A stretch of 64,000 bases of DNA from Branchiostoma floridae. Lineage: Eukaryota; Chordata; Leptocardii; Amphioxiformes; Branchiostomatidae. The translations under genes and the position numbers were made by a program. The notes below the pieces were generated by a model that had not been told where the DNA came from, did not search any database, and worked only from the letters and a program-made list of their open reading frames with translations. Shown here in pieces: positions 22,601 to 60,855 of the stretch (position 1 is the stretch's first letter; each line of letters opens with the position of its first letter). The stretch covers positions 1 to 64,000 of the forward strand of contig NW_023365778.1 of the NCBI RefSeq assembly GCF_000003815.2. Reading direction: 5' to 3'.

Positions 22601-25600
22601 ATAATAGTGCTTTTGTACTTTTTTCAAGCTAAAAACTTTTTTCTTTATGTTTTGGATTAGCTGTTACCTTTACCCCAACCATTTTACAATTTTTATTTTT
22701 ATTTCGCCCTCTCGCTCCATATTTTTTATGAAAAAATCCGTGAACCAAGAAATTAGATTGGTGTGGCCTTAGGCACTGCCCCTACAGCCTCAAAAGAAGG
22801 CTAGTATTGGACTACCTTACAGTTTACCTTTACCTTTGTGTTTCTAGGTCTCCTGTCAGCAGCTATTGAACCGTTCCTGACCGGCTCAGTGTACGACATT
22901 ACCGTCGTCCCCATCAGTATCAGCTACGACCGGCGCCTGGAGGAAACCCTGTACGCCAGGGAGCTGCTGGGGATCCCTAAACCAAAGGAATCCACTTCAG
23001 TAAGTAATTTAGCTGGTCCAAACAATAACAGAGGCAAATTCATATATGTTTCCATCTATTTCATCTCAAGACAACTTTATTACCCTTCAACTTACTGTAA
23101 ATACAGACATTTTTGCGGTGGTTTTATGTTCGCGGTTTTTGGGATGCCAATTCACCGCAAACTTAAAACTACCGCAAACATTTTTTATTGGCAGTAAGAG
23201 ACTACAATGCATGATGCCACCATGAACTTAAAACCACTGCAAACAGTCCTTTATCCCGCTACCGCAAAATTAAATCCCCACAAACTTAAATGCATTTACA
23301 GTATACAAAATCTGATTTCCAAGAAGGGGGCCCAGTATATACCTGTCAGGCATGTTAACGTTACAATCTGTGTGGTAAAGTATGCTCTGACCTTGACCTC
23401 TCGCTGTAGATACTTATGATATAGATGAGGTAGATACTAGCATAAAATTAACCACAATGTAATACATGTAGTCAATCCGAAGGCCTGCCGTAGGGTTGAT
23501 ACACATGCTTGATACATGCTTTTGATTCTTTAAAATTTAATTTGTTTCTTTCAGGGACTGGTGAAGGCACGTAGTGTGCTACAAGAGAATTATGGGAACA
23601 TCCACGTCTGTTTTGGTGAACCGTTGTCAGTTAGGAAGTTGGCAGAGGGAAGAATCGACCGCAGTATTCACGGACTACATCCAAGGTGTGTTTTAGATTG
23701 TCTACCAGGTAAAGGTAATGGTAAATAGCATTGTAAGCTGTAGGGGCAGAACATTGTTGTTCGCTACTGTGTTTACGGAATGGTATATGGAGGGAAGCCC
23801 AATATTCTTCTTCCGCAGCCTTTAACCTTCCCAACTTGCCAATTTTCATACCAGGTTGGAGTGAGGAAAGTCGTGTAAAGTGCCTTCCCCAAGGACACAG
23901 CGTCAAGTCAGGAATGCCAGGAATCAAACCCATGACTTCTCAACCTTGTGTCCGCTATCTATCTAATGAAGGATTATATATCACATTTGTAGGCATTGTG
24001 CACAAAATTAAAGTTTCAATTTGAAAGAATAAGTTTCCTATAATGCATTTCAATTTTACTAAACTGTATTGTATCACTAGTCTAAGAGTTTTGGCCAAAG
24101 TGTAAAACTGGACAGAAACAGGAAACACAACATTTTTTCCTAGGCCTAAGCTACAATGTTAACATGATGCATAATATTTGTCAGGCTGTGAAGACATTTA
24201 AGAGATCTGCAAAGGTGTATCTGCATTTATATAACCAATAGTACTTAGTCCAAGGCAAAAAAAAATTGAACACATCAATCCCATGTACTTCATAACCCTC
24301 ATGTACTGAAAGGCAATGGGGGACATTGTACATGTATGTTGTACATATTCTCAAGGTGTCATTGTTCTGGTAACATTGTTCCCTGTGTTTCCACCCCCAG
24401 ACACATGTCCATGTTCACCAGTGAGGAGCACACCTTTGTCCAGCACCTTGCCCACCAAGTCATCCTGGCTCAACAGAAGTACATGGTCATCTCACCCTGG
24501 TCACTGGTTGCTGCCGTCCTCTCCCAGCATCCTCAGGGGCTGTTGCTAAAGAAGCTTGTGCACGAGGTAGTCTGGCTGAAGAAGCAAGCAGTCGGTCTTG
24601 GTGCCTTTGTTAATTGGCCAGGTAAAACAAAAGCTTTCATTGCTCTCAAATTACGTTTACGCTCCCTCGTTATGCAAGTGACACAGCCAGGAATCAAACT
24701 CATGACTTCTTGGTCCAGCGGAGTTATGTGTCTGACAAAATTCATTAACGCTAGTTCACCTTTATCAACGGGGTAACCTATTCCGTTGTTTTTAGAAACA
24801 CGTCATTTAGGGATATCAAGTTGACGGACGGTGGGCGATATTTTCCAAACTGAAAGAAAGCAGTTTGAAACCACCGTCCGATATCTATAGATACCATTCT
24901 TAAAAACAACAGATATAGGTTACCCAGCGGATAAAGGTGAACTAGCGTTATCTTTAATCATAGTCTGACTCTATCAACGACTCACAAACTTAAGGTTCCC
25001 TTCAATCACACGATATCAAAAATCAAAAGACGAGTCTACATTAAATTTTATTGATTTATCTCGTACTTGTTTCATCCCTCACAGCTAAGGCAGACCCCAG
25101 TAACATTGTAAAGTCTGCATTAGAACTTCACCATCATGTTGTCACCCTGGGAGCCAATGGGAGGGTGGTTCTGAACCTCCCGACGCCGACGCGACCCAAG
25201 ATGGAGACTGAGATGGCGAGGAAACACAGGCTGATGGAGGAGGCCGAGGTGCGGCTGATGGTCGTCACGGGAACCAACCAGCTGCTCCACGTGTTTGTGA
25301 GGGTCGCACTGGTCCTGATGGCGCTGAGCAAGGATGGGAGTCAAACAAGAGGTTTGTGTTATCATTTTTTCTACACACAGACCAAACACAATACCTCCAA
25401 TTTTTGCAGAGGTAATGCTGTAGAGTTTTAGTGTATGCTCACATGTCAATATATTAAGAATATTGTTCTCTTGCAGATGAACTGTTCAGAATATTCGGGT
25501 TCCTAAGAAGATTGCTAGAGAAGGATTTCATCTTCATGCCTGGACAAGATAAACAGGTAATACTAGTTGTCAACTCTTAGATTCTGTTTATAATTACATA

Positions 25601-31478: not shown

Positions 31479-34400
31479 CTAAACGATCCCATTGGTATCA
31501 TATATCTGTGTCATGGTCCCGTTAAGTACAAAATCTGGTCGGCTGATCTCCTCGCAATTGACATGATCAAGAATCTTTGAAATGATCCCCATCTCCCATT
31601 GCCCCAACCAACTATCTCCCCGACACGGTCCCCTACTGGCGAGAGAATGTCCGGTCTGGCTGTTGAATCCAAACACTTCTCGTATCTTCAGTTTTGCATC
31701 CTCGCTAACACACTTGATACCAAGAATTTCGATGACCTTCGCGACCATCTTCTCCTTGTATTTACACAGCTCCTCGTATCTTAGGATCACGTCGAAACAT
31801 CGGTGGGCATCTGTTTTCGTCAGGTCGTGGGCTTTCTGCATGAACTCGAGCCAGACGCATGCTGTGAACCAAACAACCCCGTGCGGGACGGGGATACACC
31901 TGAACACTGGGTTTTCCCATGGAGAATTTGGTGCCCAATGAAGGAAGTTGTTGATGTAGAAAGAATCTAGCCTAAGGGCTGTGATTAACCAATACTTCCA
32001 GTAGCTTCTCTCGGCCATAACGTGAGCCCAAGAGTCCACCGTACCAAGGAGGTTTCTGTAGAGTAAGACGGTCTTCACTTCTGGCAAGGCCCTCCGCAAC
32101 AGATCCGCTATGGGGAAAACCTGTGAACACAATTAGAGTGGAGTTTATCGGCATTGCATGTGCAATATGCAACATATAATAAAAGTTGACCTGATTCGAT
32201 ACAAAAAATGGCATTATATATGAATGCAGGCCAAACTTTTGTATGACCGACACTTTAAGGGGATTGGGACTTGCCCAAATTTTTGGCTGACGTGGACCGG
32301 TGTACTGATATTTACAGGACGTGATGTCACAGTCATGTGACTGCAGCAAGCAACTGGCCGTAAAGTGCCGGATAACCTGTGTCATCCCCCGTCCCGTCAT
32401 CTCGTTTATGTGTTGTAATGTTGATCATGGTATGTTTAGTCTGCATTAACGAAGAGTATGTAAAATAAGCCCATTTTATCAACGTCAGGGCGGGCGGAAC
32501 AACATTATCAGAGAGAACCTTAACTACACACATTGGGGTTGAATGTAGTAAATTGGACACAAAGATAATCGATAGCAAAACTATAGTATGTTATGAATTA
32601 TCCATATCTATAATTTACATCCTTCCCCTTTCTTACAACATGTGTAGGTGAATTTACAGAGTTTTCCCATTATATCGTAGTAAGATGATGACTTTGCATG
32701 TGTGAATAGATAAAGGTTCAAACAAACATTTTGTGCTTTTTCGGTGTGAATGTTCACATGATAATAATATTAATGATAAACCACTAAAGGTTAGGAGAAA
32801 GGATATAACTTAAACCCACGAGTTGTACCAACCTGTCCGCGCATTTTGTAACAGGTGATAGTTTTGGAAGGGTCTTTCAGCAGGAGAGTGTAGTTGAACA
32901 GGGTGTTGATGTGTCGAATGACCTCCAACAACATCTCTGTGACATCTTCAGGCATGGCCTTCTTTGACAGGACGTACCGAGAAATGTTGGCGTACACGTC
33001 AGATTCGGACAAACTGTGCATCAGGCCGCTTGCTTCTAGCGACTTGATCAGTAGTGTAGAGCCGCAGCGCACTGAACATTAGCAAAACAATGGAGGAGTT
33101 AGAGCCTCACCATATGATTCATAAGTTAATATTGCAATTTTATACTTTATATCCGTACATAAAATAAAGCGCTTACCAACAAGCTTTCGACTAGTCCTCT
33201 GATCCTTCTCAAGTTGAGATGACCCGAAGCCCATGCCATACATCCAGACCAGAAGTGTGACGTCAGCAAAGGGTCAACGGTGCTTGGAAGTCGGTATCGT
33301 CCCCCGTATCGGTTTTAACTTGAGAAGGATCAGAGGAATGATCGGAAGCTTCTTGGGAAGCGCTTTATTTTGTGTACGGGTACAAAAGTCTAAATTGCAG
33401 CGTAATGTTCATTACCGTCACAGATGAACTTTCATTCAAGATTCATAACTTTGTTTTAGCCAGTATTGGCCAGTTCTGCTCCATAAAATCACGGTCATAT
33501 TCTGATATTAATGACTTCCAATAGCGCCAATATTCAATTTGGTATTTGGCACCTTATCATCATATAGGTATGCGACGTCCACCGTCCACCGATCAGAAGG
33601 TCCCATTTCATATTTGTTATATGACGCCGTAACATGGAGAAATTGGTTAAACGCCAGTGTTAAATGCATTAAACACCGTCATCGGATACAGTCAGAAGGA
33701 TAGTGGACAGGGCATTAATTGACCAATCAGAATAACAGCCAGCAGGTAGGAATGTCCACCAATACAGTACAGTATAGAAGATTTTGAAAATATTTGACAT
33801 ACCAAAATAGCAACAATATTTTCTAAGGAAATTTTGGTTTCAAAATGAAATCCGTAATCTCCTTAAGTACCAAAAAGGACACGTTTAAATTTTCAACTGC
33901 ATTTCTCATATACCCAGTGCATTTACAAGTATGGTATCAAAAGAATTTGTATGTCTTTTACGGGTACGTTTGGATAGGCTAATGACCCTCTTCGCTCACT
34001 CGGTGGTTTTATTCGGTAGCTAATAGATAATAGCCAGATAGACACCATATACATGTACACCTCGGGGCGGGTCATTAAGCCTTTTTTTTGCTATCATTTG
34101 AAAGCAGTAGTGCATACAACTTTCTAACTTACTCGTTATATGAACAAAAATAGTCGTGATGTTCGCCACGTCAGCGGCAACCTCAGCAGCCACGTCTGCC
34201 AACTCGGAGAACGGAATCACCAGGAGTTCGTCCGCTTGTCGTCGCAAGGCCTTCACCCCGGAAAAATTACAACAATCAGCGCAATGGAAAACTTCATGTA
34301 TTTCATGTACATTGTGTATCAGTATATCACTGAGAACATATTCGCCATCTATCTGTTGTCCTCGCACTGCATATTTAATGACAAGTACATGGTCATTATA

Positions 34401-41989: not shown

Positions 41990-44900
41990 ATGGAGAATTC
42001 CCCAGACAGCATGTCGACCTGGCCACACCACAGGCTGCCAGAGTTCTCCTCCCTCCTGCGACCAGAGTCACGGGCCATGGCCAAACCAAGCCCTGCCAAC
42101 AGGTCAGACATCCTTAACATTCAACCAGGGCTGTCAAGAGCTTTTAATTAAGTTTTTGTGTGTCCCACTCATTGTTGGGATGTCCCTGTAGCTCAACTGG
42201 TAGCAGTCTCACAGTTGAGCTCCTGCACAATTGAGTGACATGTTAGAAAACCACAGCATGTAAATGTTATGGATGACATTAGCACTAATAGTCATTGGTT
42301 GATTTTTTTATTTTAGAAAGAGACTCCGAGATTTATCCCCTTAAGGAATAGATGGTCAGCATGACAAGAACTTACCAAAATGGGAAAATATGCTGTGTTG
42401 TAGCCTTCATTGATTTGTAGATTGAAGTGACATGAGTTAGCCAGGATTGTAGTTGTAGAAGTGACACCTAGTACATTCATTGTAGTAGTGGAAGTGACAC
42501 CTGTTTGAAGTGCCTTGAGTGAAATAACCAGCTTATACTAGTCTACCACACTAAGTTTCACTTTGCACTGGAATAAAAGACTTGTTGGCTCATATAGGTG
42601 TCTAAGTTTTGTCTCTACATTGTTATTATATGTACAGTTGAATGAATTGTTACACAGTGTCTTTAATTCGTACCTACAGGACACCCAAGGATTCCTTGAG
42701 TCCAGGAGAAAACACTCAAAGCAAGGAAGCAGTGTGCACTCCCTCCATGCTCCCAGTAGGAGGCGCTGTGACCATGCGGCAGCTGTACATGGGCGAGTCC
42801 AGGTCCAGCACCAGTTCCAGCCTCTCCGACTCCCTGTCTGACTTCTGCACCAGCAGCCCTGATGCTAGGGACAGGATGAAGGGGAGAGAGACAGAAAGAG
42901 AAGCTCTGAGTAGAAAAGAAGATCACGAAAATGATGATGGTACTGAGAGAGCAACACTGTGTCAGCCAAGTGATGAGTGTAGTTCTGGAAGTACAGAGCA
43001 AGTGGGATCAGAACGGCAGCCTAAAGATGATAGTGATACTTCAATGCACAAAGGATTGGGTCATCCTCAAAGCAGTACAGCAGATAGTGCAACTGATTCT
43101 GAGGAGACTGAGAGTGAGAGTGAGTTTGCTGAAGGGATCGAAGCAGACGTGGATGGTAAAACCGTCGGCTCACACAGTCAGGATCAATTCAACCTGCACA
43201 TGACTCCAGAAAGTGTGGAATCTAACACACCTGAAAGTCCTTTGGTGAAAGATGCAGTAGGTATGGAGGATTCTTCCAGTGATGTCACCGTATCCGGCGA
43301 TAAGGCCTACTCTGCGACGTTCTCAGTTCTCTGTGCCAACAGCAGTCTGCAAGATTTCACCCAGGCGGACTTCATGGATAGGGTGAGGGCTCGAGTGAGA
43401 GTCGGCTCCCCGGACTGGTCCCTAGGCCTTGGTGCTGGTGACGTGAGGTACTGTACCACCCCCAGTTCTGAAGTCCTTCCCAGTGTGGAACATGTCGACA
43501 ATCCACCAGAGACTCACAGCACTCTGCATACTCCTCCGCTGACGGTCAACAGGAGTCCGAACGTTGTCGATATGGCGACAGAGCAAAACAAGAAACTCCA
43601 CGAGGCCAGCGTGATTCCTTCTCTACCCACGACAAGTCCAGCGTTGGCCACCCAGACTGACAGTTGTTCTCAGAACACTTTGATTGGTGGAACTGTAGCA
43701 GGAGGAAAGATCCCAGATGCTACTACGTGGTATAGGAGACTGCCTCAGCCGCCACAGCCTGTAGAACCTGTGATACCAGACTCAAACAGGACGACCATTC
43801 CTGACAGCATGAGTTACCCATGTCCTGAGATAGATGCAGACATGATACAGGATGGTGCAGCCTTGATGTGGAACCAGTCTCCTGAACTCACAAGGGAAGG
43901 AGTACCTCTCCTCGAGTCTTCACAGCAAGAAGCCAGAACAAGCCTGAACAAGCACGGCTCGGCGTGGAAGTTCACCTACACCCATCCCTGGGACTTCTCT
44001 CCCAGGAAAAGTGATGAGACGCTCACCGAGTACCAAGCAAAGCCGTCGTCAGCTCCTGTGCATAGTAGCGTGTGCAGTGATCTTGCTACTGAGGAGCACC
44101 TAGTGAGAATGACTGGCCAGGTGCCTGCGAAGACCAATGCTGACGTCACCCAGCAGACATGGTCAGCCTGTCCCATGTACACCCCGCTTCCAAGTACCAT
44201 GTCCCCTGCTGTTAGTATATCCCAGCCAGCACACAATGATCTCAACCTGCTCACACAGACAGCTCAGGAACAGGCGGAAACGCTGTCGTCCATCCTACCA
44301 GGGCAGCAGTTTCTCGTGTACCTGGTGCCGGGACCTCCGGACACATCCGGCACACCAGGTCCCCCCACCCTCCTGTACGTTCCCCACACCCCGGGGATAG
44401 CTCCTCCGGTCATCCGCAAGGACATCATGCAGCACGGGCAGATCCACGGCAACAAGGGCAACAACAACAACAACAAGTCTGGGTATGTCTTCATCCCAGT
44501 CAGGCCCGATCCTGTCTCTTCCGCACAGTTCCAAACCGGCTATATCGGACAGCCCGTTCCACCATACGCAAACCCGCCCCAGTCAGGACACAGCTTCCCA
44601 CAGGTGCAGAGAACGTTCCCAGATCCGACCCCACAGCAGCTGTACAACACAGGGGAGCCTCCAGTATCCACACCCGTGCTACAGGGTGGTACAACAGGAC
44701 AGTGGAGTCACAGCTGTCCAGTCTACAACACCATCCCCACCAGCTCTACCTACAGCTCCCACATGACCACTGCTCCAATGAGAGGCAACTCGGTTGGCCT
44801 GTTGAAGAAAACGAGAGGTCAGCCAGCAAGCTCTTCCGCAACTCAGTACGACACGCAAGCAAAAAACGTCGCAGCAGCCAACAACACCAACCCTGTCTCC

Positions 44901-47900
44901 ATCCGCTACAACATGATCGGCTGCTTCACAGATGCTGGAGTTGTCACCCAAAACATTTTGACCCAATCCTCCAGTGGATTGCTCATGTCTCACTGCAGCT
45001 CTGTGATGTCTGCACCTGGAAATAGCTTGCCTTCTCCTGTAGAATTGACAGCCATACCAGATGAAAGAGAGAGGACACAACAGGTGAACTGGAGACAGAT
45101 GTACCCTGGCTACCTGCAGCAGCAGACTCACACCAAGTCCACCTCCCTCCTTCGACAGCACCTACAGTCCAAACAAGCTGCACTGGGGAAACCTCAAGCT
45201 TCGGCAAGCATTTCATCATTCTCAGGGCTAGAGAGTTTGGACTACAGCCTTTCAGTTAACAACAGCAGTACTGTCACTGGAAGCCGTGTCTCAGCTGTAC
45301 CAGTGGAGGACAGCTCGATGCTGTCACAGTCAGGGATAACGTTGGTGATGGAAACAGGTACAGGTGCTGTCAGTCAAGTTAACCTTGCTGTCCAAGCTGT
45401 GGAAAGAGCACCTACATGTACAACGACACTGGATACAGTGAAGATTGCAGAGCCGACAGGTTAGTGTAAGAAATGTGGAAGAGTCAGCTGAAAAGGAATC
45501 GGTGATAAGTGCACCACTGATAAAAATTTGAATGCTAGATTTTGATATTGGAATTATAATTTTCTTTCTTTGTTCAAGGACACCAAATTTTCTTATCTTC
45601 TTACACATTTCGCATTGAAATATGTTTTCTTTGGTTGGGTACGACACAGAAAGAATATAACACGCATATACATTGTATGTACGTATTCTGCCTCGCCCTT
45701 ATTCCAAGTCTAATCCTACCCGTGGGTGATCGGTGATACGGAATTCACCCTGTTGTATTCTCTGAATACAGGCTTAGAAACACATTTCATCACCTAACAG
45801 CAGTAGTATAGAGTAAGACTAAGAGCCAATATTTTGCAGGTGTGAGAAGTGAGGTGCCAGAGTCCACGACAGGACAGATCTCAACAACTTCTCAGCCGAA
45901 GGTTGACCCCAGGATGCACCCACCAAGGCACTACGAGTTCAAGGTCATCCAGGTCGGGACATGGAAGGTGAGAGATTGAGGAAGTCTTCTTATTGCCTCC
46001 ATGAAAAATGGAAGTTTTGTTTTAGGTCTGGATTAACTGTAATAATATTTGGTTTGTGGGTAAGTATCTTTTGTCCTGGACATGATATCAAATTGTTTGT
46101 TTTTTTGTGTGGCAGATTTCATATATGGAAGAAGTGGTATAGGTTTTGGTTTAGGCCCCCTAGCAGCTTGCACTGGAACTGCAGGGGCAGTTTGGTCTGT
46201 TCCATTTTTTTTGTTCAGCATTCTTGTATAATTGTTCCACAGATAGAGCATAAGGACAGTGATGTGGGACAGACTGCCAAAATCAAGCTGCTCTTTGCAT
46301 CAAGGTACGGTCTTTTTTTTTTAGTTCAATCTTCTTTTACTGTGTCTTAAACATGAATTACTGACCTTGCTGTCATTAAGTTGTTTTTTCAGACCTTGTA
46401 GTACCTAAAAGGCACTTAGGGCAGCAAGTTTCCTTGCTGGTCCAGTGTTTCTTTACAGGGAGTGGTAGCCAAGCCCTTCTCCTATTATGCCAAACCCCGA
46501 TTTTACATCCCTTCTTAAATATGGGTGAAGCCCCATCCAAATTGCCCTAACCAAGTTTAAACTATGGTCTCCCGGTTACCAACTAACTGGAACCAGGAGC
46601 TCAACTGTGAGGTTGCTACTAGTTGAGCTACAGGGACTTCCTTACCTTGTTCTTATAGATAATGAATGAATGAAGACCTTTATTGTACGTTTTTGCTTTC
46701 TAACAAGCTAAGTACAGGTCAATGTGAATAGGATACAATGTTAAGCCATAGTTGACATTGTGTTTGATTTCTTGTCTGCCTAGGAAACTTGTGTACGAGT
46801 TCCAGTTGAATTCTGCCCTGAAAGCCCATGATATGGGGATGAGGCAGCTGGCAAGTGTGGAGATCCCATTCAACACCATAGTTGCCATCAATGCTAAGGT
46901 AAGCAATTTATCTGTTAGTCTCTTCGAGGTAACCATCATATTGGCTCAAAAGTTAGAGTTAAGAAGGTAACACTGTATGTCACACACACACACTAACTAT
47001 CTGGTTTGTGTGTCTGTAATGTATGCCTAAAAAGGTTTGCCTTAAGATGATATTTTTGTCAGCCAGTGACATTGTTGCTGTTAAGCTGGCATCACACAGC
47101 AGGCAGCTAGTTAATCCAACAACATCATTTTTGGCTCAGATGATCTTGAGTACTGAGCAATTTTTTGGGATCCAACGATGTTCGATGGTTGAAGAAGCCC
47201 TAGGCCTATACAATGAGTGAAGGAAAGAAAGAGGGTGAATTTCAAACAAATTAGCTACACTGGATTCCTTGGCAATTTAGAAATTCATCAATCTTCTGGT
47301 AAAACAATTGCCTAAAGGTCATGATTTAACAGTGTGACATTTGTTTATTTGTTTATTAAACTTGACCATCACAATGGAATGGGAGCCAAAATAGGTGTTT
47401 TTTCACCTCTGCAATTCATATCTCTGTTGTTGTGACAGGTCGACAAGATAACTCTGGAGGTGTGTGAGGTTCCCATGATGTACTTCGGTACCCGGGTGTG
47501 TCCGCGGGAGGGCGGGGCTGTGTGCGGGAGGGCAGCACGGTACAGGAGAGACCAGCCAGCCGACATCACAGGGGGACAGCTCCAAACTGTACCCTACCAC
47601 AAAGTGAGCGCTCTGTGATAGTTATTTATGTTGTATTGTACAGTTTCATATTTTATTTCTGAGCACAAAAGAAGTTATGAGGGCAGCTTAGTTTCAAAGA
47701 TACCAAGGTGGTTAGTGTTAAATTATTGGATCAGAAACTTGGTCCTGGGTTCACGTCATTGACTTAGAAATTAAAGGTTCTTGGTAGTAATCCCAAGTAG
47801 ATTATTGGTTCTAATCCTGAGCAGTCCCCAATGTTGTCTCCTTATGGCTCATAAAAGCTATATATTTCCTAACTTGACTGATGTGAGTACTACCTAGCTT

Positions 47901-50900
47901 CGGTTATCGGTCTTCTAAGATTGAACATCATTGTCATTGTGAAATTGGAGGCCTCATGTTCTTTAAGAGACACACATTTGGAACCCACCACTGTAAAGGG
48001 TAATAGTCTATCCTGGTGCGAGTGGAACAAACCTAAGTATTACATGTACAGTTCATCTTAACAATCGTACAAAACTGTGATGTTATTTATTTCAAAACAA
48101 AGCATGTACCAATGCATGAAAAAATTTTGGTCTATCCCTGAGTTTCTCCAATGATACCAGTGACAATCACTGGGGAAAGTTGGCCATACAGCTAGTGTAC
48201 GTCACTTGTAAGTTTAAACATAGTTACAAAGTTTGTAAATATTTACATATTTTTCTCCACAGATAAAGCTCCGCTCTGCGACTGCAGTGAAGAAGGTACA
48301 GGATTGCCTGGAGAGATTCGACCCCCGTTTTGTCACCATGATGAGAACTCCCCTTACTGTGGACCCCAACAAGCGCCTGATCATGACTGTGAAGAAGACC
48401 AGACCTGTCCCTGTAGTCACACAGCCACCCAGCTGTCCTCTGAGACCCAGGGGAGAGGCGGACGAAGGAGGTAAGGCCTAGGAAAATTAGTGCTGTGTTT
48501 TTTTCTATCCAGTAAAGGTTTAAGCATCATCAGTATTGGGCTGGCAACTAGGGCTCTCTATCTACTAAAATGCAGAAACTTTCTTGGTGGTTTTATGTTA
48601 ACTTAACAGTTTTTGCAGAGGCCTCTTCACTACCAACTCAAAACCACCACAAACATTTTCCTTCTGTGTTCTACTTGTGCTGCAAAGGGCAGCCTGCTTC
48701 TCACTACATCTACCTACATGTATGTTACATTTTGTAATGGTATAGTAATATTGAAATGTATACTTGTCTCAGTGAAGAAACACGAATAAGCAAAATTATC
48801 AGATTTTTTAGTTCGCATTCATTTATTTCTCTGTATGGCTTACTGTATAACACAATAGTAGATAAGTAGTACTGTATTGGTAGAAAAGTTTACAGTATTA
48901 TGATGGAAGAAAGACATTTACATCCTTACCAACGACTTGTACCTCCCTGCAGAGAGAGTGGAACCTCCTCCCAAGCGCCCCCACGTGTCAGACAGCTGCA
49001 GCTGTAGTTCGGGCTGCTCGTCGCGCCGGTGCGGGTGCTGGAGCTGCATGCGGCCGTGCGAGCCCAGCTGTCAGTGCACCAACTGTAACAACCCCCTCAT
49101 GGTCCTCAGGCAGTTTGGGGTGGATGTGGACAAGGCACTGGAGGACGACTGTCTGGTGCTCAACTTTGCTAAGGTATGCGGTGGATTTTTCCGTTATTAC
49201 CTCCGAGTCAGTAATTAAACCTAGTCATGCCTTAGCATCTCTTGAATTGTGACAATCAAACAGTTAAAGTCTGAAACAGACTTTTACTTCCCACCCTATG
49301 AACGATTATATTATGAACTTTAAAGTTTAACATACTGAGTTCTTATGTTTGTGTGTATTTATGTATGTGTGTGTGTGTGTTTGTGTTTGGTAACCGCATA
49401 ACTCAAGTTGATGATCGTAAAATGAAAAAAAAAAAGATTACTAATAGATAATAGGGCCCCTAGTGTCTTTCAATGGTACTGCAGCATGATTTCCGGTGTT
49501 AATACCTCGTTTTTCAAGCAATTTTTCAAAGATATTTTACACTCAAGTATGACACTTATATCATGTCATCAATAGAATTTAAACTCCTGACCTCTTGTTC
49601 CAGAGGTAGAGTTTCTAACTGCAGCACTAGGCATGTGCACACTACTACTGTTAATATGCAATGTATGATAATGGAATTCACCCGCCCAGGTGCCTAACCT
49701 GCGTCAGCACCTGCAGACCCTGTACCACCTGCCGTGCTGCGGAGCCATGGTACAGCTGCTGGCCATGATCCCTGGCTGTCGCTCCTGCCCAAAGTGTAAA
49801 AACAAGGCCGTGTACTCCTACTCCTGGTGCAAGTGAGGCTGCTTTCTTCCTTTCTGTTGGGTGTTAAACCGTCTCTACTTAAAAAACAATTTCGTGTTTT
49901 TCAAATCTATGTTCTTTTCATTGAAGACAGATGACACTATATTACATTTGTAGTTGATGTTTCAATAGCCCTTGGGCAATGCAATTTTGTGCAATCACCA
50001 CAGCAGGACACAAGTCCACTAGTAGTGGTGAGTGTTCATCTACTGTGCTCTTTCCCGAATTCTGCGTGCTAAGGGAAAGCAGCTTGTGCTATTTTTAAAG
50101 ACTTGGTGTGATTTGGCATAGGATCCTACTGCATCTGTCAAGGAGGGCCCAAGTCAAGTCACTTTATTATTGTTGTCACTAACTTCTTTGGCAACATTGG
50201 TGGCTTGGACTTTCATTTTGCTAAAATGTTAAAGGAACAAGAAATTATACATCTACTGGAGCTTAATCTCTAAACTAAGGTTAACTTCATTCTGTGTTCC
50301 AGCTTTCTTCTGTGTGACCAAAACAAGAGGCCAAGGAATCACTGCACCAAATGTCGCAAGTGTAAGGACTTCAGGGATGTGCACTGCCAGGTAGGAATGA
50401 CAATTGCTGCACGTTGATAAGTGTCAACCATGATCCCTTTTACATTGCTCACCACCTAAGTCCATCCTCTACACATGCCCCTACCAAAATACCACAGTAA
50501 CTGTGCCTCCTGTAATTCCTCTTAGCCCCCATTGCAAATCTGGTTAGCCCCCACCCTTCTACTTTGCCCCCAGTGGCTGCTCTCAACCAACACTGCTCAC
50601 AGTTGACACAAAAATCGTGACAAATGTAGCAATGCAGAAAGGTGATCCAGAATCACGTGTCCAGCTGCTTTTAGATTTTGTGACTGTTACTGTTACAGTT
50701 TCTTCCCAATTTTCCTGTCAACTATGAGCAGTGCAAAGTGGAAGGAGTCACAAATGTTGGTGGGCTACATTCAGGATCAATTCATACTCATTGGAAAATC
50801 ACATCCAGTTACTCAAGCAACTGGATGTGATTTTACAAAATTCAAGAAACTGTTATTTGGCATATCTTATTACCTAGCAGTCTAACCATCATTGACATTG

Positions 50901-51170
50901 GATGAAAGAGTCAAATTTTCCCATTGATTTCTCTGTCAGAAATGTAACACCTGCTACTTCGCGGGAGCCCTGGGAGAACAGCGCTGCCCATGTTCGTTGC
51001 GACAGAGGACCAGCCAACAAACCGCCAGCACAGAGTCACTCTCTAGCTTCTTCCAGTTCTTTGCTGGAACCCACCAACAGCCATCAGGACAGGGGACCGG
51101 TCTTGGCCTGAACCAACTGGTACCATCCAGCTCAAACCAGCACGGACCAATTTCTGGTTCAGAAGTGTGA
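41990..51170 (+). CDS. Large cysteine-rich (CXC/CRC-like) putative nuclear protein, 11 coding exons, 1417 residues
   Basis: Exons 41990-42102, 42680-45459, 45840-45967, 46243-46304, 46784-46898, 47439-47603, 48263-48470, 48953-49173, 49690-49832, 50303-50390, 50940-51170 total 4254 bases, exactly 1418 codons including the TGA. Residues 1 to about 964 are Ser/Thr/Pro/Gln-rich and probably disordered, with acidic Ser runs near 150-220. Residues about 990-1180 form a conserved-looking domain (FKVIQVGTWK, KLLFASRKLVYEFQL, VPMMYFGTR) that resembles a domain I remember from plant proteins annotated as TRF-like or zinc-ion-binding. Residues about 1204-1236 carry a CXC/CRC-like cluster ending CQCTNCNN. 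Residues 1278-1358 hold a second cluster of about 18 cysteines in CxxC pairs. CRC domains of the tesmin/LIN54/TSO1 family bind DNA. DNA binding here is an inference and no standard family name fits. An acceptor at 41968-41969 just before the start suggests an upstream 5'UTR exon. Confidence 0.85.
46400..46735 (-). mobile_element. tRNA-like SINE followed by a LINE 3' tail
   Basis: On the minus strand, 46645-46420 reads CCCTGTAGCTCAACTAGTAG with a SINE body. 46735-46660 matches the LINE tail near 35600, ending AATAAAGGTCTTCATTCATT. Both lie in the intron before exon 46784. A matching tRNA-like head is at 42184-42235, and a related fragment at 8340-8470. Confidence 0.55.
47695..47950 (+). mobile_element. 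SINE-like fragment(s)
   Basis: GTGGTTAGTGTTAAATTATTG and CCTGGGTTCACGTCATT resemble a decayed tRNA head, followed by a second similar head. Located in the intron before exon 48263 of the cysteine-rich gene. Confidence 0.4.
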
Positions 51171-52203: not shown

Positions 52204-55200
52204 CTAAGGCTGGTTAAATGTTCCCTGTTCATTGTTTAACTGACTTTCCAACAATGCTTTGAATAAATCGAAGTCTGTGATCACTGGCATATCTACACTG
52301 AGCCCACAAGTAGAAAACTGGAAACCGAGAGAATTTGGTTTGAACCTGATATTCAACCGAGTGCCTGGCAGCAGGCTGTAACTTGCTGTTATGGCAAATA
52401 GAAACTGTTTCAGCATTACTTTGCCTGCATCCTGAAACCACTGCTTTACAAATGTTTTCATTTGTTCCCCAGCCTGGATATCCTCACACATAGTTGTGTC
52501 AAAATCTATTACAGAGAAAATATCCAAACCCGAGATGGCATGTTTAAATGTGTTCAGTAGTTCACATATTTCTTCCCTACACAACGTAACACCATGTGCA
52601 GGGCCTGTGTTCCACAATTCCTGGAATCCTGTAACAAGACCCAAGATGGCAACAAATGGCCGATCCAGGCACTCAATACGAGATAGTCGCGGCAACAAAG
52701 CCTCCAAGTCTTCTCTTGTGGACGGCAATTTTGCAACATCAAATTCTAACACAGTATCTTTGACCTCCTTTTGCACATTTTTGCTTTTGAGAGCCTTTTG
52801 CAAGAGAGCTCTCACATTGTTTGGCAAGATATCATATACAAAGATATGTTGGTAGTCTCTGATGGTGTTCAATTGCTCCATGCCATTAAACATGGCTTCC
52901 ACCAAGTACAGGGTAGGTACACAGGGAACAGTCTGTGTAACACAAACATGTGGGCAGTATACCGACCCACAGCATGCCAGAAGTGATACACTGATGGTTC
53001 AATATCAGGGGTCAGAGAAGGGATGCTGTCAAGTTTAGCATTTTTTTGCATTTCTGCCAAAACAGTTGAAAGCTCCCTGCTGGTCCCCCAACATCTATGC
53101 CTTCTCCCATCAAAATACTACATACTGCTCATGCCAGATGCTTTCGGGGTTATCAAGGTAATAGTTGATATTCTGCTGGTGAAGTGGACTTCCATCGTGT
53201 CTGTCAACTCGTAAACGCTGCGCCCGTGGGTTTGTGCTGATGTGTTGACGATGCCTTTGCCTGATTTCTTCAAGCAAAGATCTGGAAAGAAAACAAAGAC
53301 AAATAATCGCTTGCAGGTAGATGTGCAAAAGTTAGGTGTGACGGGTTGGTTCAGTGTAATATAACCAGCTGCTGCCGCGCCACGTGCTCAGGAAGCTGAT
53401 GTGTTGCGCTGAAGGGCGGTTATACCGGCTATATAGATACAGATAATCAAACTTTCTACTTTAATGATTTTGTCACTTGCTGTTTTCTTACTGGTATAGA
53501 CCAATTTTATGGAATTTTTCAAACAAGTTTCACAAAGTACGAATTTTACAGAATTGACATGATTCATTACTAAGAAACATACAGACAAGTTTTACAGACC
53601 CCTGATAGAGTGTTGAAAAGTAACCAAAACCTACTAAAAACTTACTAAACCTACTAATCCCTAAAAACCATGACCATGCCACATCCAGAACACAATCTAT
53701 CAAAACTTGAAGTTATGCTGCAGTTCCTTAGAAAGGACCATTGTTAAGCATTGTTAAGTAAACAAACCCAAATCTAAAGATTAAACTAAATGTACTTACA
53801 TCTGTCCAGGTGGTGCCTGGGGAAGCCAGTACTGGAAATTTGCCAGGTGTACTGGGGGTGCTGTACATACAAGAATAACATATTTCAGTTAGGCTGATTT
53901 GTTTTTGGGGTTTTTGCCAACATTACATACATGTCAATAAATACATTTATCATCACCAATTTGGCATGTAAAATTGATTAAAATAGATGACGACTGTTTT
54001 TAACAAAGTAGCTTGCTAGCACAAAAAAACACCAGTTATAAGTGTTCTAGCCAGCCTTAATTTTTCTTAGTTCCGTCCCCTGGATTTTGAATTTGGAAAT
54101 CCTGTCTAGGGCTGCAGGTGATCCTAGGGTGGTCCTGGGGCATGCTCCCCTGAAAAAAGTTCAAATCTAGACCCCCTGAAATGCTATTTCCTGCATTTTG
54201 AGGAGCACATTTTGCTTGTAGGCTCTGCTTGGTTCAAATGACAATCAAACTTGTCCTGAGCAACCACTTGATGGACTGAGCAAAAATGGTTGCTAAAGAC
54301 AAGTGGTTGGTCCAGAAGTTGGTTGGCAACAGCATATATTAATAAATACATGTAAATGATTACATTCGGCACGATATACACTTTAGTTCCCAGGAAACAT
54401 ATCTAGTAGAGATGCCCACAGTTTTTATCTCAATGCTGTTATGAACTTAAAGTTCAAGAAACCATTGTTTAACATTCAGAGCTGTGTTTTTCTAGCAATT
54501 AAACAAAGTTTGTGTTGTAGTTGTCTGTTTCTAACACAGCTCAACAAGTGCTTTCAGTTTATAAAAATTCAATTTGCACTGTGCACAGTACTAGAAGTGT
54601 CAAATGCTTCACTGATTTTCAGACATTTCCTTAACAGATTTTTTACTGTTCTTCAACTGCATCTATCTATACCATATGGTGTTATTGTTGTGAACATTAC
54701 AGACAATGTGGATTTGAACTATTTCTGATCCAAATGTTATGACTGCTAGTGCCATAAAATGTAGAAATTCTCATTTTGAAATTGCCAATGGGCTTTATGT
54801 CTATCAATTTTTGCTGTTGTGGGGGTTTGAGAGACCCCTAGTTAAAAAGAAAAGTTGGTTGCTTGAGATAGGGTCTTAATATAGTATGTAAAAATGGATG
54901 AGACTGTTTCAATATGTCCTCTGACGGCAGGTGGTTGTATCTTTGATTTTTGCCTGCAGATTTTTGTCCATCATAGACCTCGGAGTGGACGTGGCATGCT
55001 GAAGTTTGATCCAAATGTTTTGTTACCAAATGTAATTTGTACTTCTGGACGTAGACACCTTAGACATACTGATGATTACAACCTCAAACACAGCTAGCAC
55101 TGCCCCAAAGCCAAAATAAAATTTAGCATTTACCATACCTGTTGCACGTCCAAACAGTTCTTCCTCAGTCAATCCCTCAAAATCTTCAAAAATGGATCCT

Positions 55201-58200
55201 TGTATCTGTGATAAAAACATTCATAAGAAATGATTTTTTTTTTTAAATTACTTTAAAAAAATAACAGAAAATAGATACAAAATCTATCAAAAAACATAAG
55301 TAAAAAGCAATATTAATGTAACAAATTAACAAACACCTGGTCTTCCTCATGGCTTGCTGCAGGTACATGAGCTGTCACCGCTAGCTCCTGGCTTGCTGCA
55401 GGTACATGAGCAGTAGCCACTAACTCCTGGCTTGCTGCAGGTACATGAGCTGTAGTGACTAGCTCCTGGCTTGCTGCAGGTACATGAGCTGTAGTGACTA
55501 ACTCCTGGCTTGCTGCTGGTACGTGAGCTGTAGTGACTAATAACTCCTGGCTTGCTGCAGGTACATGAGCTGTCACTGCTACCTCCTGGCTTGCTGCAGG
55601 TACGTGAGCTGTCACCGCTAGCTCCTGGCTTGCTGCAGGTACGTGAGCTGTCACCGCTAGCTCCTGGCTTGCTGCAGGTACGTGAGCTGTAGTGACTAGC
55701 TCCTGGCTTGCTGCAGGTACGTGAGCTGTCACTGCTAGCTCCTGGCTTGCTGCAGGTACGTGAGCTGTCACCGCTGGCTCCTGGCTTGCTGCAGGTACAT
55801 GAGCTGTAGCGACTAACTCCTGGCTTGCTGCAGGTACGTGAGCTGTCACCGCTGGCTCCTGGCTTGCTGCAGGTACATGAGCTGTAGCGACTAACTCCTG
55901 GCTTGCTGCAGGTACGTGAGCTGTCACTGCTAGCTCCTGGCTTGCTGCGGGTACATGAGCTGTAGCGACTAACTCCTGGCTTGCTGCAGGTACATAAGCT
56001 GTAGTGACTAACTCCTGGCTTGCTGCAGGTACGTGAGCTGTCACCGCTGGCTCCTGGCTTGCTGCAGGTACGTGAGCTGTAGCGACTAACTCCTGGCTTG
56101 CTGCAGGTACATAAGCTGTAGTGACTAGCTCCTGGCTTGCTGCAGGTACGTGAGCTGTAGTGACTAGCTCCTGGCTTGCTGCAGGTACATGAGCTGTCAC
56201 TGCTGTCTCCTGGCTTACTGTAGGTACAAGAGCTATATTAGCGACTAACTCCTGGCTTGCTGCAGGTACATGAGCTGTCACTGCTGGCTCCTGGCTTACT
56301 GTAGGTACAAGAGCTATATTAGCGACTGACTCCTGGCTTGCTGCAGGTACATGAGCTGTAGCGACTAGCTCCTGGCTTGCTGCAGGTACGTGAGCTGTAG
56401 TGACTAACTCCTGGCTTGCTGCAGGTACGTGAGCTGTAGTGACTACTAACTCCTGGCTTGCTGCAGGTACATGAGCTGTCACTGCTACCTCCTGGCTTGC
56501 TGCAGGTACGTGAGCTGTAGCGACTAACTCCTGGCTTGCTGCAGGTACGTGAGCTGTAGTGACTACTAACTCCTGGCTTGCTGCAGGTACATGAGCTGTC
56601 ACTGCTACCTCCTGGCTTGCTGCAGGTACGTGAGCTGTAGCGACTAACTCCTGGCTTGCTGCAGGTACATGAGCCGTCACCGCTGGCTCCTGGCTTGCTG
56701 CAGGTACGTGAGCTGTAGCCACTAACTCCTGGTTTGCTGCAGGTAGGTGAGCTGTCACTGCTAGCTCCTGGCTTGCTGCAGGTACGTGAGCTGTAGCGAC
56801 TAACTCCTGGCTTGCTGCAGGTACGTGAGCAGTACCGGCTAGCTCCTGGCTTGCTGCAGGTAAATGAGCTGTCACCGCTGGCTCCTGGTTTGCTGCAGGT
56901 ACGTGAGCTGTCACCGCTGGCTCCTGGCTTGCTGCAGGTACGTGAGCTGTAGCGACTAACTCCTGGCTTGCTGCAGGTACATGAGCTGTCACCGCTGGCT
57001 CCTGGCTTGCTGCAGGTACGTGAGCTGTAGTGACTAGCTCCTGGCTTGCTGCAGGTACATGAGCTGTCACCGCTGTCTCCTGGCTTGCTGCTGGTACGTG
57101 AGCTGTAGTGACTAGCTCCTGGCTTGCTGCAGGTACATGAGCTGTCACCGCTGTCTCCTGGCTTGCTGCTGGTACGTGAGCTGTAGTGACTAGCTCCTGG
57201 CTTGCTGCAGGTACATGAGCTGTCACCGCTGTCTCCTGGCTTGCTGCAGGTACGTGAGAAGTAGCCACTAACTCCTGGCTTGCTGCAGGTACGTGAGCTG
57301 TCACTGCTAGCTCCTGGCTTGTTGCAGGTACGTGAGCTGTAGCCACTAACTCCTGGCTTGCTGCAGGTATGTGAGCTGTCACCGCTAGCTCCTGGCTTGC
57401 TGCAGGTACGTGAGCAGTAGCCACTAACTCCTGGCTTGCTGCAGGTACGTGAGCTGTAGTGACTAGCTCCTGGCTTACTGCAGGTACGTGAGCAGTACCG
57501 GCTAGCTCCTGGCTTGCTGCAGGTATGTGAGCTGTCACCGCTAGCTCCTGGCTTGCTGCAGGTACGTGAGCAGTAGCCACTAACTCCTGGCTTGCTGCAG
57601 GTACATGAGCTGTAGTGACTAGCTCCTGGCTTGCTGCAGGTACGTGAGCTGTAGTGACTAGCTCCTGGCTTGCTGCAGGTACGTGAGCTGTCACTGCTAG
57701 CTCCTGGCTTGCTGCAGGTACGTGAGCTGTCACTGCTAGCTCCTGGCTTGCTGCAGGTACGTGAGCTGTCACCGCTGGCTCCTGGCTTGCTGCAGGTACG
57801 TGAGCTGTAGTGACTAACTCCTGGCTTGCTGCAGGTCTGTGAGCTGTCACCGCTGGCTCCTGGCTTGCTGCAGGTACATGAGCTGTCACTGCTAGCTCCT
57901 GGCTTGCTGCAGGTACGTGAGCTGTACCGGCTAGCTCCTGGCTTGCTGTTCCAGGTAGATTTTGGTTAGCTGATGGTGGCAAAGGAGCCTCATCTGTTGA
58001 TAGCAGACTAGGTACAGATGTTGCTGAAGCTAGAGTAGCTGATGCCTGTCTGTTTATACTTTTCCAGTCAGTATGATTCATAATCCAGGTGGTTAGCTCA
58101 CATATCTTAGTGAGTTTTTCCTGACACACGGAACTATCCACCTCATGGCCATCCCGTTGACGCCGACACTCATTTGCTGCTTCAGTGGCACGAAATGATA

Positions 58201-60855
58201 TTTTTTCAAACAAAGACGCCATAGTTTCAGCCTCTCTGTTAGTTTTATTAAAGCTAGGTATTCTGCTATCTGCTACTGGTTTCTTCAGTTCAGGGGCATT
58301 TCCACACATGTCCTCCCATGTGCTCTTTTCTGGTGTCTTTACCTCTGTGTCATCAATTCCCACAGCATTTCCATCCATGCTGTTTACACTGTCAAAACCC
58401 GAGTCTCGTGCTGTTGCTGCACGCCTTCTATTTTCCTCCCTCATTTCTCTATCCATTCTGACATCTACTTCTTCAGTCCTGCCTTTCAGGTCCATTTTCC
58501 TTAGATGAGATGTAAAAAACAAAAGACATACATCAAAGAAATGAAATGTCCATTTCTGCTGAATTCCTAGTCTTTTATATCAATACAATTACAGGTTTCA
58601 AATACGTTCAGAGATACTATATCAGTAATGGATGAATCAATGTTTGAAATGAAATTTGCAGTGATTTGATTTTGAAGTTAAGTGTAGAAAATGAAAATGA
58701 AGTGTCTGTAGTGGTGTTGTGTTTGCAATACCCCTGTAGTTACAAAATGCTACTGTAACAGCAATGGAAACATGGTGTAATATAACATATTGTTCAGTAA
58801 ATGTAACCAACTGCTGTTGTGCTGTAGGCCTGTGAAGTTGGCGTGTTATGCTAAAGTTTGATTATACCGGCTATAATTTATGCAGATATATTGGTGCCTT
58901 TACAGACAGCCAGTCAGAAATCACCTACCAGCGAATCGGCAAAGGTTTTACAGACATACAAAACAACTGCCAATTTTTGTTAGTGCTGGCGTGAGGCCTA
59001 GAAAAAAAGTTTTGTTTCCTGTTTCAGTCCTGAAAAAATTAGGGTCGGTAGGTAAGGATTATCTTTTTTTCCTTGTAATTTTTCTTAGGTTGGTCAAAAC
59101 TTACGTGTGACATATTACAATACAGTCAAACAAATTTAACTGAAATGCATGAGGGCACTAAATGTCTTTCAATGTCAAACTTGAATATTGTGCATAATAG
59201 TAGTAGTAGTAGTAGTAGTAGTAGACACATTTATCCTTCATTAGATAGGACAAGCAGTGTTTTTTTTTACTTCAATACAAAGTTTATCCTTCATTAGATA
59301 GGAAAAGCAGTGTTTTTACTTCAATGCAAAGCAGGCAGAATATGTGACTCCACTGCACACCTAAAGAAAGTCTAGGGTCGACAGGTTTTTCTAGGGTAGG
59401 TAGGGAAACAGGAAACACAACATTTTTTTCCTAGGCCTGACCAACCTTCACTGATCTAAGCTCGAACTCTATTTGCCCAAGGACTGAATGATGGCTTTGA
59501 CTTGGCTTGGATCTTAATAAACAATGTTGGAAAATTAGGTCTGTGTTCAATTAAGCCTTGATAGTATTTGTGAATCTTCACCATAACAGGTGCACCTACA
59601 TGTACATATTATGATTGCATTATGATACCATACAATGTAGTATGCACAGGTAGCACTTAGACAAGAGGGTTCTGGCAGAATACATGACAAAAATATCTGG
59701 GGTGAAGAGGTCACTGCAAATCTAAAACTACCACAAAATAAATGCATTTCCAGTATTTATGTATATGCGCTCTGGTATCAATTTACTAATGATTTCCTTT
59801 AATTTCATCATCAAAGTTGTTGCCCTGATATTTGTAACAAAATCAGTCATTTGCTAACAAAAGGAAAAGCAAAGTAAGATAACTATTCAACATTTGCATA
59901 TCAAAGTATAAGACAGGGTACCTAAACAAAACTTAGGCACGGGTACAGTTACTTGGGGTCAGGTGCAAATGTATAGGCCTGGACCGACTGTCTTTTCTTA
60001 GTGATGAAATGAAATCTTTGCATGAACTCTTCAACTGCAAGTTTTCTTCATTTTCAACTGCAAATTGATCACAATTGCCATCCTTTATATGGGATTCTGT
60101 CCATCTGTAGCACTGTTGCCACGTCACTAGAACGTGGTTTCTGACTGGCTGTCCGTAAAGGTGTTTTCGTCACTGTAGCAGTATGTGACTATCGTGAACG
60201 CAAATTCAAAACGACCGCAAACACTCTTACTGCGAAATTAAATCACACTTTAAATGCATTTACGATACAATGCATTGAGTATTGAAAGCCTGATGAAGAT
60301 AACTGGATGGCTAAACAAATAAAACAAAAATTGGAGTGTGATTGACGTGTAGCATTCTGAGGGTTAAATCTAGCTTAGCAGACAAACTTAGTTACCTACT
60401 TTTTCTGCCCCTCCTACTTCTGTCACAGAAGTTGGAGTAGACGGTCCTATGGCAGTCACGTCACTAGTTATTTTGAAATTGTCACCTGATAAGAAACCAC
60501 AAATAAAGGGAGGGTGAAGTAAACAAACACAATTCATCAGTTATTGGATTAAGGACAAAATTTACCATCTTCATACGTACTAACAACTAGAACATTTGCA
60601 GAAACAACACACACAACAGCAATGGCGGACAAGCTGTGTTATGACATGCCGTCACATGCTTTCTCTAGTGCTCCATTGTGTCCCGAAGAACTGCGTCTAC
60701 CCGTCCAACCTGCCGTGTTTACCACCACAGATAGTAGACATAAGGTACGACAAGGCTTAAGTTACACAAACTCCATGTTTACGAAACAATTAAAGGGAGA
60801 ATTTGCCGATCAGAGGGGAAAGAAAGACAACCTACCTCTTCGCAATCTCGTCCAT
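52204..60855 (-). CDS. HECT-type E3 ubiquitin ligase-like gene with large tandem-repeat region; HECT domain frameshifted
   Basis: Exons 60855-60836 (MDEIAKR), 58499-55337, 55205-55139, 53860-53800 and 53281-53113 join in phase. Exon 2 encodes a charged N-terminus, then about 65 copies of a 13-residue repeat. After IFEDFEGLTEEELFGRAT comes a region resembling the start of a HECT N-lobe (LRVDRHDG). It then meets a stop at 53112-53110. The next HECT motif, GEGIDVGGP, is in the next frame; RELSTVLAEM is in a third frame; from about 52905 the original frame resumes (LVEAMFNGMEQ) and runs to the stop at 52204. The C-lobe keeps the candidate catalytic cysteine (FSTCGLSVDMP). HECT ligases take ubiquitin from E2 onto this Cys. 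The motif order suits G2E3-like ligases. The three shifts sum to zero, so sequence error, a compensated allele or a decaying gene are all possible. Confidence 0.7.
52905..53115 (-). pseudogene. Frameshifted segment of the HECT N-lobe
   Basis: Conserved HECT-like pieces follow one another in three different frames: WHEQYVVF, then GEGIDVGGP, then RELSTVLAEM through GRYTAHMF, then TLYLVEAMFNGM. Each step equals a net one-base loss, or an equivalent shift, relative to an intact gene. No plausible GT-AG intron would join the pieces without deleting the GIDVGGP motif. The frame switches are seen directly; that they are damage rather than sequencing error is not decidable here. Confidence 0.65.
53347..53445 (+). 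mobile_element. LINE 3' tail
   Basis: AACCAGCTGCTGCCGCGCC and CCGGCTATATAGATACAGAT match the tail at 7115-7185. Located in an intron of the HECT gene. Confidence 0.6.
55350..57950 (-). repeat. Coding tandem repeat: about 65 copies of a 39-bp unit encoding AASQELxxTAHVP
   Basis: The unit reads A-A-S-Q-E-L/P-V/A-A/V/T-T-A-H-V-P, 13 residues. A few units are 14 residues (ELVVTTAHVP) or variant (ANIALVPTVSQ), always in multiples of three bases. Unit types alternate (LVATAHVP, LAVTAHVP, PAVTAHVP), and blocks of two or more units recur, which points to unequal exchange or slippage of multi-unit blocks. The predicted chain is rich in Ala, Val, Thr and Gln, and likely extended or disordered. Frame preservation across 2.6 kb suggests it is translated. 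Confidence 0.95.
58790..58890 (+). mobile_element. Diverged LINE 3' tail
   Basis: AACCAACTGCTGTTGTGCTG and TATACCGGCTATAATTTATG are a diverged copy of the same tail. Located in HECT intron 1. Confidence 0.5.
58992..59441. mobile_element. Foldback element with GGCCTAG(G)AAAAAAA arms
   Basis: Arms near 58992-59026 and 59407-59441 are inverted copies (GGCCTAG, TTTCCTGTTTC). A half copy is at 24113-24150. The interior holds a (TAG)n run at 59200-59222 and a 54-base direct duplication (59228-59330). Confidence 0.55.

What the first reader, a model, noticed from the sequence alone, without database searches (positions are those of the whole stretch)
41990..51170. Intact 1417-residue protein joining a plant-like domain to two cysteine clusters
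Eleven hand-joined exons give exactly 1418 codons with every phase matching, so this is a real gene. Residues about 990-1180 resemble, in order and spacing of hydrophobic motifs, a domain I recall from plant TRF-like/zinc-binding proteins. It is followed by a CXC/CRC-like cluster (CSCSSGCSSRRCGCWSC, then CQCTNCNN) and a second CxxC-rich module. The combination fits no common animal family I can name, so it may be an ancient eukaryotic regulator lost or unannotated in vertebrates.
Basis: partly seen in the sequence, partly recalled or inferred. Interest (0 to 1): 0.8.

Follow-up and report, generated by a model that had tools for sequence, protein, structure and literature searches.

The report
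Unnamed PH-like/CXC protein, likely DNA-binding
A real, intact animal gene joins a rarely discussed PH-like domain (named TRF2/HOY1) to a DNA-binding-type cysteine cluster and a second conserved cysteine module without a family name; it is probably a gene regulator of an undescribed type.

Summary
The gene is real: eleven GT-AG exons (41990-51170, + strand) give 1417 residues and a stop, without a frame break. One reversed and three shuffled controls did not match it. Residues 1206-1237 fit the published CXC-superfamily consensus with its signature Asn. The Pfam TCR match is weak (18.8 bits, cut-off 23.5) and appears only when 38 residues are scanned alone. It is not LIN54: a LIN54-like gene lies on another contig. 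The second cysteine module matched nothing in four libraries, yet CXC and module recur together, 40-44% identical, in six other gene copies of this genome. The PH-like part was found once. Best reading: a nuclear DNA-binding regulator with a flexible N-terminus. Zinc, DNA binding and expression are untested. Ancient origin and loss in vertebrates could not be tested, as no other eukaryotic genome was available. New variant of a known kind.

The parts
41990..42102 (+). exon 1, start codon
   Evidence: in-frame TGA two codons upstream
42680..45459 (+). exon 2, residues 38-965, composition of a disordered region
45840..45967 (+). exon 3, start of PH-like domain (residues 998-1125)
46243..46304 (+). 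exon 4, PH-like domain
46784..46898 (+). exon 5, PH-like domain
47439..47603 (+). exon 6, PH-like domain
48263..48470 (+). exon 7, last residues of the PH-like match and linker to residue 1191
48953..49173 (+). exon 8, CXC cluster (residues 1206-1237) and conserved linker
49690..49832 (+). exon 9, first part of second Cys/His module
50303..50390 (+). exon 10, second Cys/His module (HCxxCxxC ... HC)
50940..51170 (+). exon 11, end of second module, C-terminal tail, stop codon

Best explanation
An intact nuclear regulator of transcription or chromatin. The CXC cluster holds zinc with nine cysteines and binds DNA; the second Cys/His module belongs to the same unit, as the two are inherited together in six other gene copies; the PH-like TRF2/HOY1 domain binds protein partners; the N-terminal tail of about 960 residues is a flexible regulatory region. 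Shown: the gene, the PH-like profile match, the CXC pattern and the conservation of the two-module unit. Inferred: zinc binding, DNA binding, nuclear location, partner binding and regulatory role.
For: PF24818 over its cut-off, absent from one reversed and three shuffled controls. CXC-superfamily consensus met, with the Asn two positions after Cys-9. TCR profile hit weakly by the 38-residue window segment (E 0.002), by L023 (E 0.0057) and by one C8 copy (E 0.014), all below the cut-off; six scrambled CXC segments, two with the cysteines kept in place, gave no match. [quoted passage not shown] PMC3438059 (passages read): Hoy1p has a homeodomain, and a related fungal protein, Phx1, activates transcription through its C-terminal two-thirds; that the HOY1 of the Pfam label is this protein is recalled.
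Against: No evidence of expression, zinc or DNA binding. TCR is not hit by the whole protein or by the 163-residue C-terminal segment even at E up to 10, and a shuffled control reached E 0.0079 with an unrelated family, so E 0.002 alone is weak. The tandem repeat and the DNA-contact tyrosines of LIN54 are absent. In the solved-structure search LIN54 ranked third, at E 7, behind two unrelated small proteins. The AlphaFold model of exon 8 alone was uninformative (mean pLDDT 52.8). Pre-SET domains, which share the fold, have only a structural role assigned.
Confidence: 0.6

Rival explanations
1. The CXC and second Cys module form a structural or protein-binding zinc scaffold, like pre-SET motifs, not a DNA reader; the protein is an adaptor in a chromatin complex.
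For: Pre-SET motifs share the CXC fold and have no assigned function beyond a structural one. The tyrosine position of LIN54 holds Arg or Lys here, and Tyr-to-Arg changes abolished LIN54 DNA binding.
Against: MSL2 has a single CXC and binds the minor groove through an inserted arginine. The unit is basic around Cys-4 in the window gene and its relatives, so a basic reader is possible too. The Arg two positions before Cys-4 is not universal: Arg in 4 of the 5 copies where both sides of this stretch were seen, Ser in the fifth.
Confidence: 0.25
2. The CXC cluster of the gene was captured from a mobile element, since repeated long open frames of this genome carry a similar cluster.
For: 13 further places match positions 206-269 of the 381-residue query at 35-45% identity (E 2.4e-4 to 0.0037), 9 of them inside open frames of 896 codons or more; counts are lower bounds. 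The one scanned carries DUF6589 and a CXC at 23.4 bits.
Against: In the three fetched elements (L026-L028) the similarity ends 6 residues after the CXC, while the gene shares the whole unit with multi-exon genes on C8. The direction of any transfer is open.
Confidence: 0.1
3. A divergent tesmin/LIN54 family member.
For: TCR profile E 0.002 with the 38-residue segment.
Against: One CXC instead of two, no LIN54-type tyrosine, below the cut-off; a LIN54-like gene is on contig C3.
Confidence: 0.05

Closest known systems
Pfam PF24818, TRF2/HOY1 PH-like domain
   Same: Residues 998-1125 align to profile positions 4-114 of 119, above the curated cut-off
   Different: Fungal Hoy1p has a homeodomain; no homeodomain was found here, and a CXC unit follows instead. 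The domain architecture of other PF24818 members was not seen in any call
CXC superfamily (tesmin/TSO1/LIN54, MSL2, pre-SET)
   Same: Nine-cysteine consensus and signature Asn
   Different: One CXC with a tenth cysteine inside, Arg where LIN54 has its DNA-reading Tyr, and a second Cys/His module without a Pfam match
CXC-module gene copies on contigs C13 and C8 of the same genome (L023, L024, L025)
   Same: Same two-module C-terminal unit, 40-44% identity to the window protein
   Different: No PH-like match within the fetched stretches. In C8 copies 2, 4 and 5 an intron splits the CXC. L023 carries the unit in one open frame with an acidic tail

Membership tests
PF24818 TRF2/HOY1 PH-like | profile score of at least 24 bits | tested here: met
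   24.1 bits whole protein, 29.7 bits segment alone; 0 of 4 controls matched it
PF24818 TRF2/HOY1 PH-like | PH-like fold | not tested
CXC superfamily | CX[C/H]X2-13CX4-7CXCX5-60CX2-4CX1-2CX2-15CXN (PMC3447885) | tested here: met
   window protein and 3 of 6 relatives as aligned; copy 4 gains the missing first exon; copy 1 has no first exon seen; copy 3 has none seen and also has Phe for Cys-7
CXC superfamily | Zn3Cys9 cluster | not testable with these tools
   needs zinc measurement or a structure
Tesmin/TSO1 (Pfam TCR) | score of at least 23.5 bits | tested here: not met
   18.8 bits for 38 residues alone; no hit for the 163-residue segment or whole protein
Tesmin/LIN54 | two tandem CXC repeats with DNA-reading Tyr | tested here: not met
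   one repeat by pattern scan; Arg at the Tyr position
MSL2 CXC | MSL2-CXC profile score of at least 26.7 bits | tested here: not met
   8.6 bits, E 2.9

The most novel reading that the evidence does not exclude
An unnamed eukaryotic family of regulators whose core is a TRF2/HOY1 PH-like domain fused to a new two-part zinc DNA-binding unit (CXC plus an HCxxCxxC...HCxxCxxC module), older than the split of animals from fungi or plants and missing from vertebrates.
Probability: 0.25. Interest if true: 0.65.

Novelty: new variant of a known kind. Interest (0 to 1): 0.45.

Why it matters
It joins a PH-like domain labelled TRF2/HOY1 to a DNA-binding-type cysteine fold and to a conserved Cys/His module that none of the four family libraries searched here describes. 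If other animals carry it, it adds a regulator family that annotation by known families misses, and the six relatives in the same genome make the unit's DNA binding directly testable.

Tried and rejected
Viral contigs and bacterial/archaeal contigs gave no relative; patterns matched but none was confirmed by tblastn. Solved structures: best E 2.4 for the 381-residue C-terminal part, 2.4 for the CXC segment with LIN54 third at E 7, 0.14 for the profile of A1 with a ribosomal protein; none taken as a relative. NCBIfam and PHROGs (381 residues) and PADLOC (163 residues) gave nothing. One C8 copy hit DUF7891 at E 0.28, far below its cut-off, not followed. PF24818 against the own genome found nothing, not even the known domain, which is split over exons; that negative carries no weight. 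The C4 match (E 0.26) is another frame over a cysteine-repeat receptor-like gene (LDL-receptor-A type, label recalled), rejected. Protein 1 was exon 8 read out of frame (from 48953, not 48955) and is ignored. AlphaFold on exon 8 alone was too weak; no fold search was made. The shuffle test (0 of 20,000) used a spacing chosen after seeing the sequence. Two of the four PH controls hit other families (E 0.12 and 0.0079), none PF24818. Papers: one search found none; one search found no paper with PF24818, IPR057939 or PTHR33494 (numbers after the first are recalled), its 6 papers held DUF3755 only; searches gave no paper on this protein in their listings. The likeness of the second module to DHHC or CTCHY zinc regions is recalled; Pfam did not report it.

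On re-checking I found two errors in alignment A1. In row 5 (C8 copy 4) I had overlooked an upstream exon with the first three cysteines. In rows 4 and 7 that residue is read at an intron edge and is uncertain. Statements here are corrected; percentages are as printed there.

Full report
Joining eleven exons of the + strand gives exactly 1418 codons with a single, terminal stop, GT-AG at all ten introns and matching phases. The start codon follows an in-frame stop by two codons, exon 2 is open far beyond chance, and third-position GC (0.594) differs from the introns (0.379). Joins 3/4 to 6/7 lie under one profile alignment (only 4 residues reach into exon 7). Joins 8/9, 9/10 and 10/11 lie under the alignment with L023, a relative with the unit in one open frame. 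Joins 1/2, 2/3 and 7/8 rest on splice signals and phase.

The genome is 513,431,437 bases in 431 contigs. That it is a lancelet (Branchiostoma) is my recollection from its size; no call names it.

Middle domain. Residues 998-1125 match PF24818, TRF2/HOY1 PH-like domain, at 24.1 bits for the whole protein (cut-off 24) and at 29.7 bits, E 6.4e-7, for residues 986-1169 alone. One reversed and three shuffled versions gave no PF24818 match; two of these four hit other families at E 0.12 and 0.0079. Another PH-like family, PH_fung_RdRP, appears at E 0.045, below its cut-off. In the own genome the domain was found in this gene only; the one other match, E 0.26, is another frame over an unrelated gene. 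A much diverged or finely split copy could be missed. Hoy1p of Yarrowia is a homeodomain protein (PMC3438059, passages read; other HOY1 papers seen only as a listing). What a plant TRF2 does was not found.

CXC cluster. Residues 1206-1237 fit the superfamily consensus printed in PMC3447885 (passages read), with the signature Asn. None of 20,000 shuffles of residues 1191-1360 had the LIN54-like spacing, which was chosen after seeing the sequence. The Pfam TCR match is 18.8 bits, under the cut-off of 23.5, and is seen only with 38 residues scanned alone, not with 163 residues or the whole protein. So the superfamily pattern is met and the tesmin/LIN54 test is not. LIN54 needs two tandem repeats and reads DNA with two tyrosines (PMC4974476, passages read); here there is one repeat, with Arg at that position. 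A LIN54-like gene, close to the human second repeat printed, is on contig C3.

Second module. From about residue 1257 to 1359 nothing matched in Pfam, NCBIfam, PHROGs or PADLOC, nor convincingly in solved structures. Yet it is conserved: L023 on contig C13 (open frame of 353 codons) and five copies within about 27 kb on contig C8 carry the CXC, the linker and this module at 40-44% identity to the window protein. The middle of that C8 stretch (about 9.6 kb) was not fetched, so five is a minimum. In the alignment, columns 86, 87, 106, 120, 136, 139, 142 and 150 are Cys and columns 135 and 149 are His in 7 of 7 rows; four more cysteines (153, 156, 167, 169) are present in the 5 of 7 rows that reach them. 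C8 copies 4 and 5 lack the last exon in the alignment. Copies 1, 3 and 4 lacked the first CXC exon there; one search found it for copy 4, and the upstream stretch of copy 3 is masked. Copy 3 has Phe for one CXC cysteine. The residue two before Cys-4 is Arg in the window gene, L023, C8 copies 2 and 4, and Ser in copy 5.

Relation to mobile elements. Thirteen other places match only around the CXC. Three were fetched and one of these scanned against Pfam; it carries DUF6589 and a CXC at 23.4 bits, just under the cut-off. A shared origin is possible and its direction open.

Mechanism. The best-supported reading is a nuclear DNA-binding regulator: a CXC-plus-zinc unit on DNA, a PH-like domain for partners, and a flexible N-terminus (62-79% P, S, T, Q, N, G, E, D, K, R in each 100-residue block up to residue 1000; composition only). 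Zinc, DNA binding, nuclear location and partners are inferred. The rival that the zinc unit is a scaffold is kept at 0.25.

Not tested: presence in other animals, plants or fungi and loss in vertebrates, as no other eukaryotic genome was on hand; the fold of the PH-like and cysteine parts; and the full number of relatives, because the last own-genome searches did not complete.

Noticed in passing
window 15989-17467 (+): 492-codon open frame with a reverse transcriptase match (RVT_1, 24.3 bits, below cut-off) and a weak GIY-YIG match; looks like a Penelope-type element (label recalled).
   Followed up: partly
window 55313-58579 (-): 1088-codon open frame made largely of a short tandem peptide repeat (AHVPAASQEL type); long stretches are open in a second frame too.
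   Followed up: no
window 24270-24776 (+): Match to the glycerol-3-phosphate acyltransferase C-terminal family, 36.1 bits, E 5.7e-9.
   Followed up: no
window 31479-32132 (-): 217-codon open frame with weak sulfotransferase matches, below cut-off.
   Followed up: no
window 52204-52998 (-): 264-codon open frame without Pfam match, downstream of the gene on the other strand.
   Followed up: no
L024, L025 (contig C8, 13.86-13.89 Mb): Cluster of at least five copies of the CXC-plus-second-module unit, on both strands; one has Phe for a CXC cysteine.
   Followed up: partly
L026, L027, L028: Repeated long open frames with a near-identical CXC cluster; L026, the one scanned, has DUF6589.
   Followed up: partly
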